From the NCBI GenBank assembly GCA_020447005.1, contig JAGRDO010000040.1, forward strand, positions 224 to 57,865: a DNA stretch of 57,642 nucleotides, written 5' to 3'. The DNA is from Paracoccaceae bacterium (GTDB taxonomy: Bacteria; Pseudomonadota; Alphaproteobacteria; Rhodobacterales; Rhodobacteraceae). This document shows, one piece after another, positions 13,161 through 23,106 of the stretch. A program made the translations under genes and the position numbers. Numbering within the stretch: the stretch's first letter is position 1; every line of letters begins with the position of its first letter. The notes beneath the pieces were generated by a model. That model did not search any database. It saw only the letters and a program-made list of their open reading frames with translations, and was not told where the DNA came from.

Positions 13161-14000
13161 ATGGTGGAACGGCCGGAGATGAGACCCGCGCAGGGCGCGG
13201 GCAGGACGCCTGACGGCACGGCCTTTGCGCTTTGCGGGCCGGAACGCGCGCCGGTCGTGGTTCTGATCCACGGCCTTGGCCTGAACCGCGCCTGCTGGCA
13301 ATGGCTGGAGCCGGAACTGGCCACGGGTTTCCGGGTGCTGAGCTATGATATTCTTGGCCATGGCGGATCGGCGCCGCCACCGCCCGCGCCAGAGCTTGGG
13401 ACCCTTTCGGATCAGCTGGCCAGGCTTCTCGACCGGCTGGGGCTGGACCGCGCCGCGATTGTCGGCTTTTCGCTGGGCGGCATGATCGCGCGGCGCTTTG
13501 CGCAGGATCACCCCGAAAGGGTGACGGCGCTTGGCATCCTGCATTCGCCCCACCGCCGCACGGACGAGGCTCGGGCGGCGATCGCCGCGCGGGTGGACCA
13601 GTCGCGGGCCGAGGGGCCGAGGGCCACGGTCGAGGCCGCGCTGGTGCGCTGGTTCACCGATGATTTTCGCGCGGCAAATCCGGCGATGATGGATCTTGTC
13701 CGCGGCTGGGTTCTGGCCAATGACCCCGGGATCTATCCGTCGATCTACCGGATCCTGGCCGAGGGGGTCGATGAAATCGTTGCCCCCGAACCGCCGCTGA
13801 CCGCTCCGGCGCTGGTCATGACGGGCGACGAGGATCATGGCAACGGGCCCGCGATGACCCGTGCCATCGCCGCCGAAATCCCGGGCGCGCAGGCATTGAT
13901 CCTGCCCGGGCTTCGCCATATGGCTCTGGCTGAGCGGCCCGAGGCCGTGAACCGCCCGCTGATCGCCTTTCTGCGCCGCCATCTGGAGCATCAGACATGA
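13161..14000 (+). CDS. Alpha/beta-fold hydrolase
   Basis: The 279-residue protein has the oxyanion-loop motif VVLIHGLGLNRACW (33-46) and the nucleophile elbow GFSLGG with Ser104. An acidic residue lies in MTGDEDHG and a C-terminal His in GLRHMALAERPE. It resembles 3-oxoadipate enol-lactonase and related ester or C-C bond hydrolases; the substrate is unknown. It opens a four-gene run and overlaps the next gene by four bases. The partners (CoA-transferase/flavin reductase, DUF1185, nitrilase-type amidase) suggest breakdown of a nitrogen-containing compound. Confidence 0.85.
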   Translation: MVERPEMRPAQGAGRTPDGTAFALCGPERAPVVVLIHGLGLNRACWQWLEPELATGFRVLSYDILGHGGSAPPPPAPELGTLSDQLARLLDRLGLDRAAIVGFSLGGMIARRFAQDHPERVTALGILHSPHRRTDEARAAIAARVDQSRAEGPRATVEAALVRWFTDDFRAANPAMMDLVRGWVLANDPGIYPSIYRILAEGVDEIVAPEPPLTAPALVMTGDEDHGNGPAMTRAIAAEIPGAQALILPGLRHMALAERPEAVNRPLIAFLRRHLEHQT

Positions 14001-16081
14001 CCGGTATCCTGAAGGGCATTCGCGTTCTTGACCTGTCGCGCATGTTGTCGGGGCCGTATTGCACGATGCTGCTGGCCGATCACGGCGCCGAGGTGATCAA
14101 GATCGAGGGGCCGGAGGGCGATACCAGCCGCAGGAACGGACCCTATCGCGAAGATGACCCGAACCATGACTGGGCGGGATACTTCGTCAGCCTGAACCGG
14201 TCGAAGAAAAGCGTGATGCTGGATCTGAAGACCGCCGAGGGCAAGGCGGCCTTCCGGGCGCTGGCGGCCACGGCCGATGTCGTTGTCGAGAATTTCCGCC
14301 CCGGGGTGATGGAGCGGCTGGGGCTGTCTTACGAAAGCCTTGCCGGGGCCAACCCGCGGCTTGTCTATGCCGCGATCCGGGGGTTTGGCGATCCGCGCTC
14401 GGGTGTCAGCCCGTATCAGGACTGGCCGGCCTATGATGTCGTGGCGCAGGCGATGGGCGGGCTGGTGGCGCTGACCGGGCCGGATGCGGCCACGCCGACA
14501 AAGGTTGGCCCCGGGATCGGCGATGTCTTTGCCGGATCGCTCATGGCGTTCGGCATCCTTGCCGCCCTGCGCGCGGCCGAGGCGACGGGATACGGCCAGT
14601 TCGTGGATATCGCGATGTATGACGCGATGATCTCGCTTTGCGAGCGCGCGGTCTATCAGCATGATTTCGACGGGACGGTGCCGGGGCCGGAAGGCAACGG
14701 CCATCCGCTGCTTGCGCCCTTCGGGATCTTTCCCGCGCGCGACGGGCATATCGCGCTTGGCATCGTGGATGATGCCTTCTGGCGCAAGCTGTGCGAGGCC
14801 ATGGGACAGGCCGGGCTTGGCACGGATGTGCGCTATGCCACCCGTGCCGCGCGGTGCCGAAACGCGGCCGGGGTGAATGGCATCGTCGCGGAATGGACCG
14901 CGGCCCAGAGCAAGGCCGGGCTGGCCGCGGTGCTGGGCGGGGTGGTGCCGTTCGGTCCGGTCAATACGGTGGCCGACATCATGGCCGATCCGCATGTGGC
15001 CGCGCGCGGCATGATCGCCGAGGTTCCGCATCCCGATGCCCGGGCGCGGGGGTGGCGGGTGGCTGCAAACCCGTTGCACTTTTCGAACAATTTGACGCCT
15101 GAATATGCCACTCCATCGGCCATAGGCGGGGACAATCGAACAATTCTGGCCGGAACGGAGAAAGTTCCCGTGGATACGCGCAAGCTGCGCGACAGCTTTG
15201 GCGCCTTTGCCACCGGGGTTACGGTGCTGACCTCGCTGCAGGGGGATGGCACGCCGCGCGGCCTGACGGCGAACTCTTTCACCTCGGTATCGCTGGACCC
15301 GCCGCTTTTGCTGGTCTGCATCGCCAAGACGGCGCATAGCTGCGAGACATTCATGACCTGCAGCCACTTCGCGGTGAATGTGCTGGCCGAAGACCAGAAG
15401 GCGATCTCGGGCCTGTTTGCCGGGCGCGCACCCGACAAGTTCGCGCAATGCGCGTGGTCGCCGGGATTGAACGGCGTGCCGTTGATCGACGGGGCGCTGG
15501 CGCAGTTCACCTGCGTGCCCGAACGCAGCATGGACGCGGGGGATCATATCGTCATCGTCGGCCGGGTTGTCGAATTTTCGCAGTCCGAGGGCAATCCGCT
15601 GGGCTATTTTCGCGGCAATTACTTCTCGATCGGGATCGAGGACCGGCTGGTCTCGGCCGTGGCCGCGGCCGAGGGCACCCGGATCGGCGCGGTGCTGACG
15701 CGCCGGGGTTCGATCCTTCTGGCCGAGGATGCGGAGGGTGCGCTGTCCGTCCCCGCCGTGGGCGGGGTGAGGCCCAGCCTTGATGCGTTGCGCCGCCAGC
15801 TGGTCAGCCGGGGTCTGAAACCCGATGTCGACTTCATCTATGCGGTCTATGAGGACCGGGAAACCGGCGCCACGGGGATTTTCTATCACGGCGAGGTCGA
15901 GGGGGCGGTGCCGAAGGGTATGTGCCTTCTGCCGCTGGAAGGCCTGCCGTGGGAACGGATCGCGAATTCGGCCGAACGGTCGATGCTGCAACGCTATGCC
16001 GAAGAATATCGCCACGGCGTCTTCGGCGTTTATCAGGGCGACGAAATCACCGGCAAGGTTCGCCGGGTGACGGACAGATGA
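13997..16081 (+). CDS. CaiB/BaiF family III CoA-transferase fused to flavin reductase
   Basis: A single 694-codon frame holds two normally separate proteins. Residues 1 to about 385 form a class III CoA-transferase: GIRVLDLSRMLSGPYCTMLLAD, the catalytic Asp176 in GPGIGDVFAG, and VENFRPGVMERLGL. Residues about 395-550 are an FMN-binding flavin reductase domain (RDSFGAFATGVTVLTS, TANSFTSVSLDPPLLLVC, FAVNVLAE, AGDHIVIVGRV). About 130 further residues are NUDIX-like, as in some longer reductases of this family. An in-frame GTG at 15170 (codon 392) follows a GGAG and would start the reductase exactly where such proteins usually start. Two products, or both a fusion and a short form, are therefore possible. 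The transferase half appears to lack the last 15-20 residues of the family. Confidence 0.85.
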   Translation: MTGILKGIRVLDLSRMLSGPYCTMLLADHGAEVIKIEGPEGDTSRRNGPYREDDPNHDWAGYFVSLNRSKKSVMLDLKTAEGKAAFRALAATADVVVENFRPGVMERLGLSYESLAGANPRLVYAAIRGFGDPRSGVSPYQDWPAYDVVAQAMGGLVALTGPDAATPTKVGPGIGDVFAGSLMAFGILAALRAAEATGYGQFVDIAMYDAMISLCERAVYQHDFDGTVPGPEGNGHPLLAPFGIFPARDGHIALGIVDDAFWRKLCEAMGQAGLGTDVRYATRAARCRNAAGVNGIVAEWTAAQSKAGLAAVLGGVVPFGPVNTVADIMADPHVAARGMIAEVPHPDARARGWRVAANPLHFSNNLTPEYATPSAIGGDNRTILAGTEKVPVDTRKLRDSFGAFATGVTVLTSLQGDGTPRGLTANSFTSVSLDPPLLLVCIAKTAHSCETFMTCSHFAVNVLAEDQKAISGLFAGRAPDKFAQCAWSPGLNGVPLIDGALAQFTCVPERSMDAGDHIVIVGRVVEFSQSEGNPLGYFRGNYFSIGIEDRLVSAVAAAEGTRIGAVLTRRGSILLAEDAEGALSVPAVGGVRPSLDALRRQLVSRGLKPDVDFIYAVYEDRETGATGIFYHGEVEGAVPKGMCLLPLEGLPWERIANSAERSMLQRYAEEYRHGVFGVYQGDEITGKVRRVTDR

Positions 16082-16793: not shown

Positions 16794-17783
16794 ATGACAC
16801 CTTTTGCGATTGCCGGCGTACAGATGTACGTCAACGCGCTGAATTCGAATGTCGAGGCGATGATCCAGCGTATCGACGTGCTGATGGCGCGGTTTCCCTG
16901 GACCCAGATGGTGCTGTTTTCAGAGCTTGCGCCCTTCGGGCCGCTGCACCGCTTCGCCCAGCCCTTCGAAAACGAGGCGCTGGACCAGTTCCGGGCGGCG
17001 GCAAGGAAGCATGGCATCTGGCTTGTTCCGGGATCGATGTTCGAGAAGGCCGAAGATGGCCGCATCTACAACACATCGGCCGTGATCGGGCCGGACGGCC
17101 ATGTGGTGACCCGCTATCGCAAGATGTTTCCGTTCCGCCCCTATGAGATCGAGGTGGATGCCGGAACGGAATTCTGCGTCTTCGACGTGCCCGATGTCGG
17201 GCGGTTCGGCCTGTCGATCTGCTATGATATCTGGTTCCCCGAAACGACGCGTCAGTTGACCAGCGCCGGGGTCGAGGTGCTGTTGCATCCGGTCCTGACC
17301 GGCACCACCGACCGCGACGCCGAACTGGCGATCGCGCGGGCGACGGCGGCGCAGTTCCAGTGCTATGTCATCGACGTGAATGGTCTTGGCGCCGGTGGCG
17401 TGGGCCGGTCGCTGATCGTCGATCCTTCGGCGACGGTGCTGCACCAGTCGGCCGGTCAGGAAGACATGTTCCCCATCGAGGTCGATCTTTCCTTGGTCCG
17501 CAGGCAGCGCGAGGCCGGTCTGAAAGGGCTGGGTCAGGTGCTGAAAAGCTTCCGCGACCGGTCGGCGGAGTTTTCGGTCTATGACCGCGAGAGCGGCGCG
17601 GACGCCTATCTGAAGACACTCGGGCCGCTGGAAATGCCACGGCAGGGTTCGCGCGCCGGTTTGGAGAAATCAGTTGCCGGCAGTGACCGGATAGCGCATG
17701 CTGGTGGAAATATAGACGTGCAAACAACGGCTTTGGGCCAGGGGCTTCAGTATCTGCCTGGGGATAAATCGGCAATCGGCTGA
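16794..17783 (+). CDS. Nitrilase-superfamily carbon-nitrogen hydrolase
   Basis: The 329-residue protein has the Glu-Lys-Cys triad: Glu44 in FSELAPFG, Lys110 in RYRKMFPF and Cys143 in SICYDIWFPE. The superfamily hydrolyses amides, carbamoyl compounds or nitriles. The core matches amidase branches, such as N-carbamoylputrescine amidase, rather than true nitrilases, but substrate is not resolved. The last 40 or so residues are an unrelated-looking tail. It stands 98 bp after the DUF1185 gene and 77 bp before the PLP decarboxylase on the same strand, so it could belong functionally to either group. Confidence 0.82.
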   Translation: MTPFAIAGVQMYVNALNSNVEAMIQRIDVLMARFPWTQMVLFSELAPFGPLHRFAQPFENEALDQFRAAARKHGIWLVPGSMFEKAEDGRIYNTSAVIGPDGHVVTRYRKMFPFRPYEIEVDAGTEFCVFDVPDVGRFGLSICYDIWFPETTRQLTSAGVEVLLHPVLTGTTDRDAELAIARATAAQFQCYVIDVNGLGAGGVGRSLIVDPSATVLHQSAGQEDMFPIEVDLSLVRRQREAGLKGLGQVLKSFRDRSAEFSVYDRESGADAYLKTLGPLEMPRQGSRAGLEKSVAGSDRIAHAGGNIDVQTTALGQGLQYLPGDKSAIG

Positions 17784-17860: not shown

Positions 17861-20599
17861 GTGCAGTCAGTCAATGATTACTATTCTGCCATTCAGCTTC
17901 GGTCGGATCGCTGGAGCACCTTGCGCGAGACGACAGCGGCGCTGAGCCGCGATCCGTCCGGGCGCAAGGCGGAGGCGCTGCGCAGTCAGATCGCCGAGCT
18001 TTTTTCGGCGCTGGCGCTGATCGAAAGCTATTGGGCGTTTCCGGGGGTTCAGGCCTTTGACGCGCTGCGCCGCCATTTCGAGCACGGAAACTATGACGAG
18101 GTCGCCTTTGGCGTCCACCGGGCCAGCCGCGCGCTGACGACCGGTGCCTATCGGCGGCGCCACATTCCGCTTGACCGTGAAAGCGCGGATGCCGAGGACC
18201 ATGAGGACGAGGCGCTGCAATCGCCCGAGGCGCGGGCCCTGACCAAGCCCTATTTCGAGGTGCTGATCGTCGATGACCTGAACGAGCATCAGGAACGCTG
18301 GCTGAAGAACAATGTCAGCCGCATGCGGCGTTTCGAGGATCCGTTCATCTATGAGATCGTCGTGGTGCCAAGTCTTGAGGATGCGCTGATCGGCATTCTT
18401 TTCAACCACAATGTTCAGGCCGTTGTCGTGCGCCCCGGCCTGCGGCTGAAGTCCGGGATCGACCTGCCGATCTTCAAGCGCTATCTCAACCGCGCGGGGG
18501 GCGAGGCCGGGCTTGCCGAACTGAAACCGGAAAACTACGGGCCCGAACTGTGCCGGCTGATCGCGGCGGTGCGCCCCGAGCTTGACGCCTATCTGGTCAC
18601 CGAACGTTCGGTCGAGGAGATCGCCGGGCTGGATCTGGGGATCTGCCGGCGGGTCTTCTACAATCAGGAGGATTTTCAGGAACTTCACCTGAATATCCTG
18701 CGTGGCGTTCAGGCGCGCTACAAGACGCCCTTCTTCACCGCGCTGGTGGAATATTCCAAGCAGCCGACCGGCGTCTTTCACGCCATGCCGATCAGCCGGG
18801 GCAAGTCGATCAGCCGCAGTCACTGGATTCAGGACATGGGGGCCTTTTACGGGTCCAACATCTTCATGGCCGAAACCTCGGCCACCTCGGGCGGGCTGGA
18901 CAGCCTGCTGGAGCCGCACGGCCCGATCAAGAAAGCGCAGGAACAGGCGGCGCGCGCCTTTGGCGCGAAACAGACCTTCTTTGCCACCAACGGGACATCG
19001 ACCTGCAACAAGATCGTCGTGCAAGCCCTTGTAAGGCCAGGGGATATTGTGCTGATCGACCGCGATTGCCACAAGTCGCACCATTACGGGATGGTGCTGG
19101 CGGGGGCACAGGTCGTCTATCTCGACAGCTATCCGCTGAACCAGTATTCGATGTATGGCGCCGTGCCGCTGCGCGAGATCAAGCACCAGCTTTTGAAGCT
19201 GAAGGCGGCGGGCAAGCTCGATCAGGTCAGGATGCTCTTGCTGACCAACTGCACCTTCGACGGCATCGTCTATAACGTCGAGCGGGTGATGGAGGAATGC
19301 CTCGCCATCAAGCCCGATCTGGTCTTTCTGTGGGACGAGGCGTGGTTTGCCTTCGCCCGGTTCGGCCCGACCTACCGCCAGCGCACGGCAATGAATGTCG
19401 CCAACAACATGCGCGAAAACCTGAAGCGGCCCGAACATGCCGAGGCGTGGGAAAGGCAGCAGGCCGAGCTGAAGGATGCCGATGAGGAAACCCTGCTGAA
19501 CACGCGCCTTTTGCCGCCGCCCGATGCCAGGGTGCGCGCCTATGCGACGCAATCGACGCACAAGACGCTGACAAGCCTGCGGCAGGGGTCGATGATCCAT
19601 GTCAACGATCAGGACTTCAAGGGCGAGGTCGAGCAGTCCTTCCACGAAGCCTATATGACCCATACCTCGACAAGCCCGAATTATCAGATCATCGCATCGC
19701 TTGACGTGGGGCGCAGGCAGGTCGAACTGGAAGGGTTCGAATTCGTGCAGCGTCAGGTCGAGGCGGCAATGTCGATGCGCAAGGCGATTTCGACCCATCC
19801 GCTTTTGCAGAAGTATTTCAAGGTGTTGACGGCGGGGGACATGATCCCCGAGACCTACCGCGAAAGCGGGGTGACCAGCTATTACGACCCGCATCAGGGC
19901 TGGACCGATATCTGGGAATGCTGGGAAAAGGACGAGTTCGTGCTGGATGCCACGCGGGTGACGCTGGCCGTCGGCGGCACCGGCTGGGACGGCGACACGT
20001 TCAAGACCAAGATCCTGATGGACAAATACGGCATCCAGATCAACAAGACCTCGCGCAATACCGTTCTTTTCATGACCAATATCGGCACGACGCGGTCCTC
20101 GGTCGCCTATCTGATCGAGGTGCTGGTCGAGATCGCCAAGGAACTGGACGACCGTCTTGACGATGCCTCCAACATGGAGCGGCGGGCCTTCGAGCATCGC
20201 GTCAAGGCGCTGATGGAAGACTTGCCGCCCCTGCCGGATTTCTCGCGCTTTCACGAGGCGTTCCGGACCGACGACAAGACCATCGAGGGCGATATCCGCA
20301 GCGCCTTTTTCCTGAGTTACGACGACAAGAACTGCGATTATCTGGAACTTGACGGGTCACTGAAAGAGGTGATGGACAGCGGGCGCGAAGTCGTCTCGGC
20401 CTCGTTCATCATCCCCTATCCGCCCGGATTCCCGATCCTCGTGCCGGGGCAGGTCGTCAGCCATGAAATCCTGGCTTTCATGCGTGCCCTCGATGTGAAC
20501 GAAATCCACGGCTACCGCGCCGATCTGGGTCTTCGGGTCTTTACGGAAGAGGCTTTGGCAAAACGCCTGAAGGGCGCCGCGCCGAAGGCCGCGAAATAA
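17861..20599 (+). CDS. Long PLP-dependent Orn/Lys/Arg-type decarboxylase
   Basis: The 912-residue protein has a fold-I PLP core of the OKR decarboxylase class: ETSATSGGLDSLLEPHG, FFATNGTSTCNKIVV, DRDCHKSHHYG, LWDEAWFAFARF and the cofactor lysine Lys568 in QSTHKTLTSLRQGSMIH. The C-terminal FIIPYPPGFPILVPGQV is typical. The family removes the alpha-carboxyl of a basic amino acid to give a polyamine. Usual enzymes have 710-760 residues. Here an N-terminal helical stretch of about 150-170 residues precedes a receiver-like wing domain (EVLIVDDLNEHQERWLK). GTG 17861 is the start that fits; its ribosome site is weak. It is followed 16 bp later by an ATP-grasp gene. Arginine, ornithine and lysine remain possible substrates. 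Confidence 0.88.
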   Translation: MQSVNDYYSAIQLRSDRWSTLRETTAALSRDPSGRKAEALRSQIAELFSALALIESYWAFPGVQAFDALRRHFEHGNYDEVAFGVHRASRALTTGAYRRRHIPLDRESADAEDHEDEALQSPEARALTKPYFEVLIVDDLNEHQERWLKNNVSRMRRFEDPFIYEIVVVPSLEDALIGILFNHNVQAVVVRPGLRLKSGIDLPIFKRYLNRAGGEAGLAELKPENYGPELCRLIAAVRPELDAYLVTERSVEEIAGLDLGICRRVFYNQEDFQELHLNILRGVQARYKTPFFTALVEYSKQPTGVFHAMPISRGKSISRSHWIQDMGAFYGSNIFMAETSATSGGLDSLLEPHGPIKKAQEQAARAFGAKQTFFATNGTSTCNKIVVQALVRPGDIVLIDRDCHKSHHYGMVLAGAQVVYLDSYPLNQYSMYGAVPLREIKHQLLKLKAAGKLDQVRMLLLTNCTFDGIVYNVERVMEECLAIKPDLVFLWDEAWFAFARFGPTYRQRTAMNVANNMRENLKRPEHAEAWERQQAELKDADEETLLNTRLLPPPDARVRAYATQSTHKTLTSLRQGSMIHVNDQDFKGEVEQSFHEAYMTHTSTSPNYQIIASLDVGRRQVELEGFEFVQRQVEAAMSMRKAISTHPLLQKYFKVLTAGDMIPETYRESGVTSYYDPHQGWTDIWECWEKDEFVLDATRVTLAVGGTGWDGDTFKTKILMDKYGIQINKTSRNTVLFMTNIGTTRSSVAYLIEVLVEIAKELDDRLDDASNMERRAFEHRVKALMEDLPPLPDFSRFHEAFRTDDKTIEGDIRSAFFLSYDDKNCDYLELDGSLKEVMDSGREVVSASFIIPYPPGFPILVPGQVVSHEILAFMRALDVNEIHGYRADLGLRVFTEEALAKRLKGAAPKAAK

Positions 20600-20615
20600 C
20601 AACAGGGAGAACATG

Positions 20616-22076
20616 ATGGCCAAGAACGAGTTGAAGAACATCTCGGAAATCCGCCGGCACTTCCACCGCAACGAAGAGCCGATATATTTCATTTCTGCGA
20701 CCAATTTCAACCTCTTGGGCATCGATGAATGGTGCAAGAACTTCAAGTACATCTGTTACATCGACTGCTATGACGGCCGCCATCCGAACGTGTTCTGCCC
20801 GTCAGAGCAGCCGCATGCCGAATTCCAGTCGATCGAGGAGATCAACAATTACCTTCTGCAGCACAAGGAGGTGATCGACCTGATCAAGCGGCGCGGCGGC
20901 AAGCCGAAATTCGTCTTCCTGATGTTCGATGAGGAAACCGAGCGGCTGGCCAAGGAACTTGGCGCCGATGTCTGGTTCCCGAAGGCGAAGCTGCGCACCA
21001 ACATGGACAACAAGATCCAGACGGTTCGGGTCGGCAACAAGGCCGGCGTGCCATCGGTTCCGAACGTTCTGGCCGAAGTGAAGAGCTATGCGGATTTGCA
21101 GAAGATCTGCGAAAAGGCGGGGCTGGGGCACGATCTGGTGTTGCAGTCGGCCTTTGGCGACAGCGGGCACACGACCTTTTTCATCAAGTCCGAGGCCGAT
21201 TTCCGCCGTCACGAACATGAGATCGTCGGCGAGGGCGAGATCAAGATCATGAAGCGGATCGATTGCCGCGGATCGGCGATCGAGGCCTGCGCGACCAAGG
21301 AAGGCACGATTGTCGGCCCGCTGATGACCGAGCTGGTGGGCTTCAAGGAGTTGACGCCCTATCGCGGCGGCTGGTGCGGGAACGAGATCTTTTCGACCGC
21401 CTTCGCGCCCAAGACGCGCCAGCGCGCGCGCGAGCTGACATTCCAGTTCGGCGAACAGCTGCGCAAGGAAGGCTATCGCGGCTATTTCGAGCTTGATTTC
21501 CTGATCGACAAGAAGACGGGCGAGCTGTGGCTGGGCGAGTTGAACCCGAGGATCACCGGGGCTTCGTCCATGACCAACCACGCGGCCTTTGCCCATGCGG
21601 ATGCGCCGCTGTTTCTTTTCCATCTGCTCGAATTCTCGAAGAAGAAGTTCAATCTCGACGTGGATGAGCTGAACGCCCGCTGGGCCGATTCCTCGATGAT
21701 CGATTCATGGTCCCAGATGGTGATCAAGCATACCGAGGATACGGTCGACATCGTGTCCCATGCCCCGCAATCCGGCATCTACCGGATGCTGGAGGACGGG
21801 CGTGTCGTCTATGACCGCTTCGATTATCACCGCCGCGCCGTGGAAAGCGAGAATGAGGCCTTTTTCCTGCGGATCCTGAAGCCCGGCGACTATCGCTATG
21901 AAGGTGCGGATCTGGGGATTCTGGTGACGCGCGGCCGGTCGATGACCAACGGGTTCCAGCTGAACGAGCGCGCGAAGCGGTGGATCCACGGGATCAAGCA
22001 AAGCTTCGCGGCGCGGCCGCTTGCGGCGCAAAGCGCAGGCCCCGCCCTTGCCGACCCGGCCTTCAAGATCATGTAG
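20616..22076 (+). CDS. ATP-grasp carboxylate-amine ligase-like protein
   Basis: The 486-residue protein has an ATP-grasp layout. A pre-ATP domain comes first (about 1-120, YIDCYDGRHPN, FLMFDEETERLAKELG), then ATP-binding strands (DLVLQSAFGDSGHTTFFIKS, EIKIMKRIDCRGSAIEACA). A metal/phosphate segment FELDFLIDKKTGELWLGELNPRITGASS carries the Glu/Asn ligands of the family. Relatives are annotated as biotin carboxylase-like, but no biotin domain is seen. An acyl-phosphate ligase joining an acid to an amine is more in keeping. Two adjacent ATGs are possible; 20616 is spaced six bases from GGGAG. The position between a decarboxylase and a C45 acyltransferase suggests it ligates the decarboxylase product. 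This is inference. Confidence 0.8.
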   Translation: MAKNELKNISEIRRHFHRNEEPIYFISATNFNLLGIDEWCKNFKYICYIDCYDGRHPNVFCPSEQPHAEFQSIEEINNYLLQHKEVIDLIKRRGGKPKFVFLMFDEETERLAKELGADVWFPKAKLRTNMDNKIQTVRVGNKAGVPSVPNVLAEVKSYADLQKICEKAGLGHDLVLQSAFGDSGHTTFFIKSEADFRRHEHEIVGEGEIKIMKRIDCRGSAIEACATKEGTIVGPLMTELVGFKELTPYRGGWCGNEIFSTAFAPKTRQRARELTFQFGEQLRKEGYRGYFELDFLIDKKTGELWLGELNPRITGASSMTNHAAFAHADAPLFLFHLLEFSKKKFNLDVDELNARWADSSMIDSWSQMVIKHTEDTVDIVSHAPQSGIYRMLEDGRVVYDRFDYHRRAVESENEAFFLRILKPGDYRYEGADLGILVTRGRSMTNGFQLNERAKRWIHGIKQSFAARPLAAQSAGPALADPAFKIM

Positions 22077-22119
22077 CGGGCAGGGTTCGGGATCCGGGTC
22101 CGGCCCGAGTGGATAGTCT

Positions 22120-23106
22120 ATGCAACTGGAATGGCGTGCCATCGATGAGCCGGAGCCGGGCCCGAAGCTGGCCGCGCTTTTCCATGCCTATTGGCCGGCC
22201 TACCGCCGCTGGTGGCTGCGTGAGGGCGAAGGCCCGCGCCCGACCTACGGGGCCAGCCGCGCGGCGCTGAAAACCCATATGCCGGAGTTGCTGGCGACCT
22301 ATGACGCGCTTTGCGAGGTGGTGGGCGGTTCGGATCACGCGGCACGGTTCCTGTCGTTCTGGCGGCCGCCGCCCTATCTTTCGGGCTGTTCGCAGGCGAT
22401 CTGGCCGGGGCGAGAGCCGGTCATGGTCCGCAACTATGACTATAATCCTTCGGCGTTCGACCGGCTGATCCTGCGCAGCGCATGGCAGGGGCGCGGGGTG
22501 ATGGGGCTGAGCGACGGGCTGTGGGGGCTGGTCGACGGGGTCAACGATGCCGGGCTGGCCGTGTCGCTGACCTTTGGCGGCAGGCGGGTCGTGGGCGAGG
22601 GGTTCGGTGTGCCGCTGATCCTTCGTTATGTCCTTCAGACCTGCAAGACCGCCGAGGCCGCCGCCGAAACGCTGGCGCGGATCCCGACGCATATGAGCTA
22701 TAACGTCACCGTTCTGGACGCCAGGCGCCGCTATCACACGGTGCTGATGTCGCCCGACAGGCCGGCGGTCGTGACCCATGCCGCGGTTGCCACCAATCAC
22801 CAGAAATCGGTGGAATGGACCAGCCATGCGCGGTTCACCGCGACGGTCGAGCGCGAGCGTTTCCTTTTGCAGCGCCTGACCCTGCATGTCGATCCGGTCG
22901 AAAAGTTCATTTCGGCCTTCTTGCGCCCGCCCCTTTATTCCACCGCTTTCGCGCAGGGTTTCGGCACGCTTTACACCGCCGTCTACCGGCCAAGGCGGCG
23001 CGAGATGGAGCTGCGCTGGCCCGGCGGCAGCTGGGCGCTGAGCCTGAAGGATTTTCAGGAAGGGGCACGGGTGATCTATACGCCGGACTCGGCGACGGGG
23101 ACCTAG
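22120..23106 (+). CDS. C45-family autoproteolytic acyltransferase/hydrolase (Ntn fold)
   Basis: The 328-residue protein resembles the penicillin acyltransferase (AAT) branch of Ntn hydrolases. YLSGCSQAIW places the probable nucleophile at Cys90, exposed after self-cleavage between Gly89 and Cys90. MVRNYDYNPS, GLWGLVDGVNDAGLAVSLTFGG and ATNHQKSVEW are further family landmarks. These enzymes cut or swap linear amide bonds. The first 89 residues would be a removable propeptide. The gene lies 43 bp after the ATP-grasp gene on the same strand, and its last four bases overlap the convergent phosphohexomutase stop. Acyl donor and acceptor are unknown. Confidence 0.83.
   Translation: MQLEWRAIDEPEPGPKLAALFHAYWPAYRRWWLREGEGPRPTYGASRAALKTHMPELLATYDALCEVVGGSDHAARFLSFWRPPPYLSGCSQAIWPGREPVMVRNYDYNPSAFDRLILRSAWQGRGVMGLSDGLWGLVDGVNDAGLAVSLTFGGRRVVGEGFGVPLILRYVLQTCKTAEAAAETLARIPTHMSYNVTVLDARRRYHTVLMSPDRPAVVTHAAVATNHQKSVEWTSHARFTATVERERFLLQRLTLHVDPVEKFISAFLRPPLYSTAFAQGFGTLYTAVYRPRRREMELRWPGGSWALSLKDFQEGARVIYTPDSATGT

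What the first reader, a model, noticed from the sequence alone, without database searches (positions are those of the whole stretch)
17861..23106. Decarboxylase - ATP-grasp - C45 acyltransferase trio: candidate undescribed amine-conjugate pathway
Three co-directional genes with 16- and 43-bp gaps encode a basic amino acid decarboxylase (Lys568 PLP site), an ATP-grasp ligase-like protein without a biotin domain and an Ntn acyltransferase with Cys90. Families: OKR decarboxylases make polyamines, ATP-grasp enzymes join acids to amines, and C45 enzymes cut or exchange linear amides. Inference: the set makes a polyamine, couples it to an acid and then trims or exchanges the acyl group. I know of no characterised pathway with this trio.
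Basis: partly seen in the sequence, partly recalled or inferred. Interest (0 to 1): 0.82.

Follow-up and report, generated by a model that had tools for sequence, protein, structure and literature searches.

The report
Conserved arginine-linked amide ligase/hydrolase gene set
Four neighbouring genes that recur together in distantly related bacteria probably turn arginine into a small amine, join it to an acid and later split it again; no described pathway was found for the set, but the chemistry is inferred and untested.

Summary
The three genes are real and lie where stated. They are more than a chance cluster: of 299 genomes spread over the phylum, 9 hold the ATP-grasp orthologue, and all 9 also hold the decarboxylase, close by. 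In 20 orthologue-bearing sampled genomes other than the window's, the decarboxylase is near in 18 and the C45 gene in 18; order or strand is rearranged in three.

The decarboxylase is of the Rv2531c type, activity unknown. The 'biotin carboxylase' lacks the carboxylase motif and may be an amide ligase. The C45 protein folds like isopenicillin N acyltransferase. Neighbours in relatives (GABA transaminase, PuuR-like regulator, agmatinase family, SSADH-like) point to arginine-to-GABA metabolism. In three plasmids the ligase and C45 sit, without the decarboxylase, inside a D-arginine/4-guanidinobutyrate cluster.

Best reading: a conjugate-and-release arginine route, like gamma-glutamyl-putrescine catabolism in logic but built from other enzymes. 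Functional linkage is strong; arginine is more likely than not; the acid and the order of steps are unknown. New variant of a known kind.

The parts
16794..17783 (+). CN-hydrolase (nitrilase superfamily amidase), 329 aa; Glu44-Lys110-Cys143 (catalytic roles recalled)
   Evidence: PF00795 117.2 bits; E44, K110, C143 invariant in 20 of 20 aligned rows; best solved relative by profile is nitrilase homologue 2; near the ligase in 13 of 20 sampled genomes
17861..20599 (+). Orn/Lys/Arg-type PLP decarboxylase of the Rv2531c type, 912 aa; Lys568 (codon 19562-19564)
   Evidence: OKR_DC_1; 9n0o/9n0n E about 5e-253; S565-T-H-K568 and D492-E-A-W in 21 of 21 rows
20613..22076 (+). ATP-grasp protein, probable amide ligase, NCBIfam PRK06524, 487 aa
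   Evidence: 770.6 bits against cut-off 684; model pLDDT 88.8; the 50 listed nearest folds are biotin carboxylase domains and PurK; carboxylase motif absent
21537..21551 (+). ATP-grasp motif E309-L-N-P-R313
   Evidence: E309, N311, R313 and upstream D295 in 21 of 21 rows
22120..23106 (+). C45-family Ntn amidohydrolase/acyltransferase, 328 aa; Cys90 (codon 22387-22389)
   Evidence: NF040521 176.3 bits against 85; G89-C90 invariant in 28 of 28 rows; model pLDDT 89.4, top fold 2x1c isopenicillin N acyltransferase precursor, TMq 0.68

Best explanation
The four genes are one functional unit of arginine-to-GABA metabolism that works by making an amide and breaking it again. Inferred steps: the Rv2531c-type enzyme decarboxylates arginine to agmatine; the ATP-grasp enzyme activates a carboxylic acid as acyl phosphate and joins it to the amine of agmatine (or of another intermediate of the arginine-to-4-guanidinobutyrate/GABA chain); while the amine is masked, the guanidino end and/or the other carbon end is processed by ureohydrolases, transaminases and aldehyde dehydrogenases of the kinds that lie nearby in some relatives; the C45 Ntn-hydrolase then cuts the amide to release the product, and the CN-hydrolase removes a second, perhaps primary, amide. 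It works like the E. coli putrescine (Puu) route or the Ebony/Tan conjugation cycle, with other enzymes. Shown here: the gene set, its conservation and co-inheritance, kept catalytic residues, predicted folds, and neighbours. Inferred: substrate arginine (about 0.6), amide formation and release (about 0.55), identity of the acid (unknown; glutamate is only an analogy).
For: Linkage: 9 of 9 ATP-grasp genomes of 299 also hold the decarboxylase, within about 1.3 kb; of 20 sampled genomes 18 have the decarboxylase, 18 C45 and 13 the CN-hydrolase in the stretch held; rearranged in three; Mantel correlations 0.94, 0.81, 0.87 over 21 loci, 0 of 2000 permutations as high. Arginine: in the active-site stretch the arginine decarboxylases 7p9b, 5xx1, 2vyc and 6q6i (46-50 bits) outscore lysine enzymes (35-39 bits); agmatinase-family genes upstream of the set in L152, L153 and L154, 3 of 20 (over the model's cut-off), and somewhere in 13 of 17 set-bearing genomes searched; in L003, L037 and L158 ligase and C45 lie between ketoarginine decarboxylase/aldehyde dehydrogenase and D-amino acid dehydrogenase/racemase genes. 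GABA: of 89 loci, a GabT-type cluster in 26 and a PuuR-like regulator cluster in 20 (labels from one representative each); SSADH-like and class III aminotransferase genes follow the set in L123. Amide chemistry: metal-site residues kept and carboxylase motif lost in the ligase; C45 fold.
Against: No substrate was tested. Over the whole protein the decarboxylase is not closer to arginine enzymes: lysine enzymes 9e0m (189.6 bits) and 3n75 (169.3) score above arginine enzymes 7p9b (154.8) and 2vyc (153.6), though below 6q6i (205.3), and LdcC (219.1) scores above arginine decarboxylase (177.2) among NCBIfam models. Ligase and C45 also occur without the decarboxylase nearby (three plasmids of one architecture, and Cupriavidus necator N-1), so agmatine cannot be the sole partner unless made elsewhere. 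No agmatinase-family match in 4 of the 17 genomes searched (G690, G073, G045, G443), which fits catabolism to GABA poorly there. No CN-hydrolase match in the stretches held for the rhizobial symbiosis-plasmid copies or for G443, G073, G045, G828 and G692. The 50 listed structural matches of the ligase are carboxylases and PurK, not amide ligases. Most counted loci are close relatives (82-94% identical), so neighbour counts are not independent.
Confidence: 0.42

Rival explanations
1. Biosynthesis of an end product: the set makes an agmatine-type amide that is kept or exported, and C45 exchanges or trims its acyl group.
For: In fungi an ATP-grasp enzyme and an ANL-family amide synthetase together build agmatine-containing E-64 (PMC12568646, passages); four of 17 set-bearing genomes have no agmatinase-family match; in the related pair G073 and G045 only decarboxylase, ligase and C45 were labelled.
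Against: Import systems (TRAP/TAXI clusters in 38-39 of 89 loci; peptide-type ABC on a rhizobial plasmid) and GabT, SSADH-like and PuuR-like neighbours point to use rather than export. No exporter was recognised among the clusters I labelled, but many clusters were left unlabelled.
Confidence: 0.2
2. Scavenging of imported arginine-containing amides: C45 and the CN-hydrolase split the imported compound, the decarboxylase or the D-arginine route uses the arginine, and the ligase is a side or salvage activity.
For: Transporters next to the set; explains why either the decarboxylase or the D-arginine genes can sit beside ligase and C45.
Against: The ligase tracks the decarboxylase closely in evolution (Mantel 0.94) and would have no need in simple hydrolysis. 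Transport substrates were not tested.
Confidence: 0.17
3. The PLP enzyme is an oxidative or otherwise atypical decarboxylase giving 4-guanidinobutyramide, which the CN-hydrolase converts to 4-guanidinobutyrate.
For: A nitrilase-type amidase accompanies the set in 13 of 20 sampled genomes, its best solved relative being nitrilase homologue 2; the route through 4-guanidinobutyrate is suggested by the plasmid variant.
Against: The CN-hydrolase also accompanies ligase and C45 where the decarboxylase is missing (L003, L037, L158, L159); oxygen use by such enzymes is recalled, not tested; it gives the ligase no role.
Confidence: 0.1
4. The ATP-grasp protein is a true biotin carboxylase, as its database name says, unrelated to its neighbours.
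For: PRK06524 name; biotin carboxylase domains are the nearest folds.
Against: In a weak alignment (E 0.05) the residues at the carboxylase motif differ and do so in 21 of 21 rows; no carboxyltransferase or biotin-carrier gene is annotated in the stretches; and it is tied to the decarboxylase.
Confidence: 0.04

Closest known systems
gamma-Glutamyl-putrescine (Puu) catabolism
   Same: Amine is acylated by an ATP-using enzyme, processed, then released by an amidase to give GABA (recalled); a PuuR-like regulator and GabT lie near the set in some relatives.
   Different: Ligase is ATP-grasp, not glutamine-synthetase-like; hydrolase is C45, not a class I amidotransferase (Puu enzyme classes recalled); the acid is unknown.
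Ebony/Tan amine conjugation cycle of insects
   Same: Tan is a C45-family, self-cleaving protein (PMC10194958 passages); histamine is conjugated to beta-alanine and freed again in flies (abstracts in the listing). That Tan does the freeing is recalled.
   Different: Ebony is not an ATP-grasp enzyme (recalled); animal, not bacterial; no decarboxylase in a gene set.
Rv2531c of Mycobacterium tuberculosis (9n0n, 9n0o)
   Same: Decarboxylase matches over residues 14-902 at 845 bits; the activity of Rv2531c is unknown too (PMC12910592 passages).
   Different: I did not look for ATP-grasp or C45 partners in that genome.
Isopenicillin N acyltransferase (2x1c)
   Same: Same fold, TMq 0.68, and a Gly-Cys processing site (PMC10194958 passages).
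   Different: 14% identity in the structural alignment; substrate unrelated as far as known.
E-64 biosynthesis in fungi
   Same: An ATP-grasp enzyme makes a pseudodipeptide and the finished compound carries agmatine (PMC12568646 passages).
   Different: Another ATP-grasp family; an ANL-family enzyme is the second amide-forming enzyme; builds a protease inhibitor.
Arginine transamination network of rhizobial bacteroids (CATCH-N)
   Same: Labelled arginine gives 4-guanidinobutanoate and GABA in Bradyrhizobium bacteroids (PMC7268258 passages).
   Different: The terms biotin carboxylase, peptidase, amidohydrolase and racemase occur 0 times in its main text.

Membership tests
Biotin carboxylase (PRK06524 as named) | Score over NCBIfam cut-off | tested here: met
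   770.6 against 684 bits
Biotin carboxylase (PRK06524 as named) | Carboxylase motif EMNTR-QVEH (its catalytic role recalled) | tested here: not met
   ELNPRITGAS aligns, weakly, with EMNTRLQVEH of 8f41; the four places read T/S/C, G, A/I/V/C and S in 21 rows
Biotin carboxylase (PRK06524 as named) | Carboxyltransferase or biotin carrier gene nearby | tested here: not met
   None annotated in the stretches; genomes at large not searched
ATP-grasp enzyme | ATP-grasp fold and acidic/Asn metal site | tested here: met
   D295, E309, N311 in 21 of 21 rows; the assignment of these as metal ligands is recalled
ATP-grasp amide ligase | Forms an amide | not testable with these tools
   Only weak matches to peptide ligases 8ynd and 8yi6, E 0.85 and 0.99
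C45 Ntn-hydrolase | Score over cut-off, Gly-Cys site, fold | tested here: met
   176.3 against 85
C45 Ntn-hydrolase | Self-cleavage before Cys90 | not testable with these tools
   Needs protein
OKR PLP decarboxylase | OKR_DC_1 domain and PLP lysine in STHK | tested here: met
   PLP role of the lysine is recalled
Known arginine/lysine/ornithine decarboxylase models | Score over NCBIfam cut-off | tested here: not met
   Best: LdcC 219.1 against 968; arginine decarboxylase 177.2 against 1167
Puu pathway | PuuA and PuuD homologues in the set | tested here: not met
   No glutamine-synthetase-like or class I amidotransferase gene annotated in the stretches; not sought genome-wide
Agmatine deiminase route | AguA in set-bearing genomes | tested here: inconclusive
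   0 of 17 over the cut-off of 381.8 bits, 9 of 17 with weaker matches, best 306.1

The most novel reading that the evidence does not exclude
A widespread, undescribed arginine-to-GABA route in which a PRK06524 ATP-grasp ligase and a C45 Ntn-hydrolase replace, without common ancestry, the ligase and hydrolase of gamma-glutamyl-polyamine catabolism. It can be fed either by an Rv2531c-type arginine decarboxylase or by the D-arginine/ketoarginine path, and it rides on symbiosis plasmids, in one case beside nifHDKE, where it would handle arginine in root nodules.
Probability: 0.25. Interest if true: 0.78.

Novelty: new variant of a known kind. Interest (0 to 1): 0.6.

Why it matters
If right, it would give a function to three orphan enzyme groups at once: the Rv2531c-type decarboxylases (structure solved, activity unknown), the family that databases call a biotin carboxylase (PRK06524), and a bacterial branch of C45 enzymes. 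It makes the question directly testable with four proteins.

Tried and rejected
Chance clustering: rejected by the 299-genome sample. Biotin carboxylase: disfavoured on motif and context. Acid-resistance decarboxylase/antiporter: the four sampled genomes with the decarboxylase but no ATP-grasp orthologue (G035, G111, G159, G031) have an AspT-like membrane frame directly downstream (the only one tested by Pfam, in L185, is PF06826), as do the annotated plasmid relatives L165-L167; a fourth annotated relative, L168, has none. The window copy has none beside it, so this looks like a sister branch. Agmatine deiminase plus N-carbamoylputrescine amidase: not supported, since no agmatine deiminase over cut-off was found in 17 set-bearing genomes, but weaker matches up to 306.1 bits leave it open. 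Upstream CoA-transferase/aldehyde dehydrogenase genes of the window: did not fall in any of the 60 largest clusters of 89 loci, so left out. C45 profile against solved sequences gave only weak choloylglycine-hydrolase hits, E 0.03; the fold search resolved it. Paper searches on PLP arginine oxidases and on C45 with arginine led nowhere; the Rv2531c structure paper (PMC12329521) is not held and nothing of it was seen. Glutamate as the acid was considered and not adopted.
Full report
What is there. Four + strand genes: CN-hydrolase 16794-17783, OKR-type decarboxylase 17861-20599, ATP-grasp protein 20613-22076, C45 protein 22120-23106, with gaps of 77, 13 and 43 bp.

Is it more than chance? In 299 genomes drawn evenly from the phylum (own genome included), the PRK06524 profile gives 147 genomes at E<=0.001, but only 9 score above 500 bits; the next listed match has 50.6 bits, so I count the 9 as orthologues (6 of them over the family's cut-off). 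The decarboxylase at E<=1e-100 is in 13. All 9 are among the 13, and the two genes lie within about 1.3 kb of each other in all 9; hypergeometric P 1.5e-14, ignoring phylogeny. The 9 genomes fall in six families. Two more samples, 229 genomes of another class (5 with the orthologue, 2 of them already known) and 385 of the window's class (11, of which 2 already known), plus 18 of one family (2, both already known), bring the set to 20 orthologue-bearing genomes other than the window's. In these 20, fetched with flanks and labelled by tblastn: decarboxylase 18, C45 18, CN-hydrolase 13. Misses: G828 shows the ATP-grasp gene and a class III aminotransferase only; G692 has only the C-terminal part of the ATP-grasp gene, with C45; the contig of G780 ends inside the ATP-grasp gene; those of G570 and G690 end in the decarboxylase, so a CN-hydrolase could lie beyond; G443, G073 and G045 show no CN-hydrolase in the stretch held (the G443 contig ends 1.5 kb after C45). 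Arrangement varies: CN-hydrolase, decarboxylase, ligase, C45 in ten of the 13 with a CN-hydrolase (C45 unseen in one, G780); CN-hydrolase, ligase, C45, decarboxylase in G086 and G070; C45 and CN-hydrolase on the other strand in G007. Pairwise distances of the three proteins over 21 loci (window plus 20 chosen by hand among loci with the three genes whole; cut loci, L038 and the 80 loci were left out) correlate at 0.94, 0.81 and 0.87, and 0 of 2000 permutations reach this.

With 8 plasmid loci and the window, 89 in all (L001 and the short stretches L007-L036, also held then, were left out), a cluster analysis gave ATP-grasp 89, decarboxylase 87, C45 85, CN-hydrolase 76; 72 loci have all four. 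Missing decarboxylase: L003, L037. Missing C45: L055, L090, L115, L118. The clustering missed at least one CN-hydrolase, that of L037, which tblastn finds. These are close relatives and contig ends cut some, so the counts are descriptive.

The parts. Decarboxylase: OKR_DC_1; far below the NCBIfam cut-offs for known arginine, lysine and ornithine enzymes; its closest solved relative is 9n0o/9n0n, which PMC12910592 (passages) lists as Rv2531c, activity not clarified. In the active-site stretch it matches the arginine decarboxylases 7p9b, 5xx1, 2vyc and 6q6i better than lysine enzymes; over the whole protein lysine enzymes score as high as or above most arginine ones, so the substrate call is tentative. 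ATP-grasp: model pLDDT 88.8; the 50 listed folds are biotin carboxylase domains and PurK, TMq 0.49-0.62. The motif EMNTRLQVEH of methylcrotonyl-CoA carboxylase aligns weakly (E 0.05) with ELNPRITGAS here, and the places of QVEH read T/S/C, G, A/I/V/C, S in 21 rows, so carboxylation of biotin is unlikely; amide ligation is a common alternative in the superfamily (established knowledge). C45: model pLDDT 89.4, best fold the isopenicillin N acyltransferase precursor, TMq 0.68, then N-acylethanolamine amidase and acid ceramidase. CN-hydrolase: Glu44, Lys110, Cys143 invariant in 20 of 20; best solved relative nitrilase homologue 2, with aliphatic amidase and formamidase further down.

The company it keeps. 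Of the 89 loci: TAXI 38 and TRAP permease 39, GabT-type transaminase 26, FMN-type glutamate synthase-like 21, XRE-cupin regulator 20, universal stress protein 20, class III aminotransferase 20. Labels rest on one representative each: GabT over cut-off (550.1 against 506.65), regulator best matched by PuuR but under cut-off (134.6 against 211), agmatinase model over cut-off for the gene near the set in G864 and for the Shinella one. The universal stress protein label comes from a position in annotated relatives and was not scanned. In G086 an SSADH-like gene (595.6 against 646.35, under cut-off) and a class III aminotransferase follow the set on the same strand. In 17 set-bearing genomes searched (the window's and 16 of the 20; G570, G692, G780 and G828 left out), agmatinase-family matches occur in 13, over cut-off in 11, and agmatine deiminase over cut-off in none, with weaker matches in 9.

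The informative exception. On plasmids of Shinella, 'Roseateles' XES5 and Sinorhizobium RAC02 the ligase and C45 sit, with no decarboxylase in the stretch, between agmatinase, 5-guanidino-2-oxopentanoate decarboxylase and aldehyde dehydrogenase on one side and D-amino acid dehydrogenase, racemase and RidA on the other; a CN-hydrolase and an Lrp regulator lie at the head on the other strand (RAC02 labelled by tblastn only). XES5 carries a decarboxylase (57%) elsewhere on the same plasmid, some kilobases from arginase, ornithine cyclodeaminase and ArgP genes. Cupriavidus necator N-1 has CN-hydrolase, ligase and C45 with a peptide-type ABC transporter and a GntR-aminotransferase (MocR-type) regulator. 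So ligase plus C45, usually with an amidase, can stand without the decarboxylase, and arginine to 4-guanidinobutyrate/GABA is the recurring theme. This pulls against a fixed 'decarboxylate, conjugate, trim' order.

Rhizobia. On one R. leguminosarum plasmid (Vaf10) decarboxylase, ligase and C45 stand next to nifHDKE and to a peptide-type ABC transporter and an amidase-family gene; on two others the same trio or its remains lies near RiPP genes. Some copies look decayed, so the set is not needed for every symbiosis. Bradyrhizobium bacteroids make 4-guanidinobutanoate and GABA from arginine (PMC7268258, passages).

Mechanism and weighing. I favour a conjugate-and-release arginine route (0.42). 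Strongest support: a ligase and an amide hydrolase kept together in 18 of 20 sampled genomes and also where the decarboxylase is gone, with an amine source and GABA-handling genes around them. Strongest objections: no assay; an ambiguous decarboxylase specificity; four of 17 set-bearing genomes without any agmatinase-family match; carboxylases as best folds for the ligase.

Novelty. Each enzyme family is known; the set as a pathway did not show in the listings of nine paper searches of an open-licence library, which misses most subscription journals. Papers seen as passages only: PMC12910592, PMC7268258, PMC12568646, PMC2242806, PMC10194958, PMC8503589, PMC7901475; all others as listings. New variant of a known kind.

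Noticed in passing
This looks like an acid-resistance decarboxylase/antiporter pair.
   Followed up: partly
L157:9517-10170 (G692): A frame that begins like a TAXI solute-binding protein (by eye) and continues into the C-terminal part of the ATP-grasp protein; no transporter, CN-hydrolase or decarboxylase was labelled nearby, as after a deletion. C45 remains.
   Followed up: no
L005, L039 and short matches H25-H30 in Sinorhizobium plasmids: Several rhizobial plasmid copies of the set look decayed: decarboxylase in pieces and C45 cut short next to an IS30 transposase in L005 (a longer C45 match lies elsewhere on that plasmid), partial ligase matches in H25-H30.
   Followed up: no
L003:11779-13566: The 595-aa racemase has an ornithine-racemase-like N-terminal part (393.3 bits, under the cut-off of 480) and a weak arginase-like match in its C-terminal part.
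   Followed up: no
window 13997-16081: One 694-aa frame with a CoA-transferase family III domain followed by a flavin-reductase domain, a fusion that struck me as unusual.
   Followed up: no
L006 and L039: Nif11-type RiPP precursor genes with radical SAM epimerase and C-methyltransferase genes lie a few kb from the set on R. leguminosarum plasmids.
   Followed up: no
L113, L117: Records titled Oceanobacillus and Woeseia carry copies 82-83% identical to the window's ligase, close to the Rhodobacterales ones; the labels or bins may be wrong.
   Followed up: no
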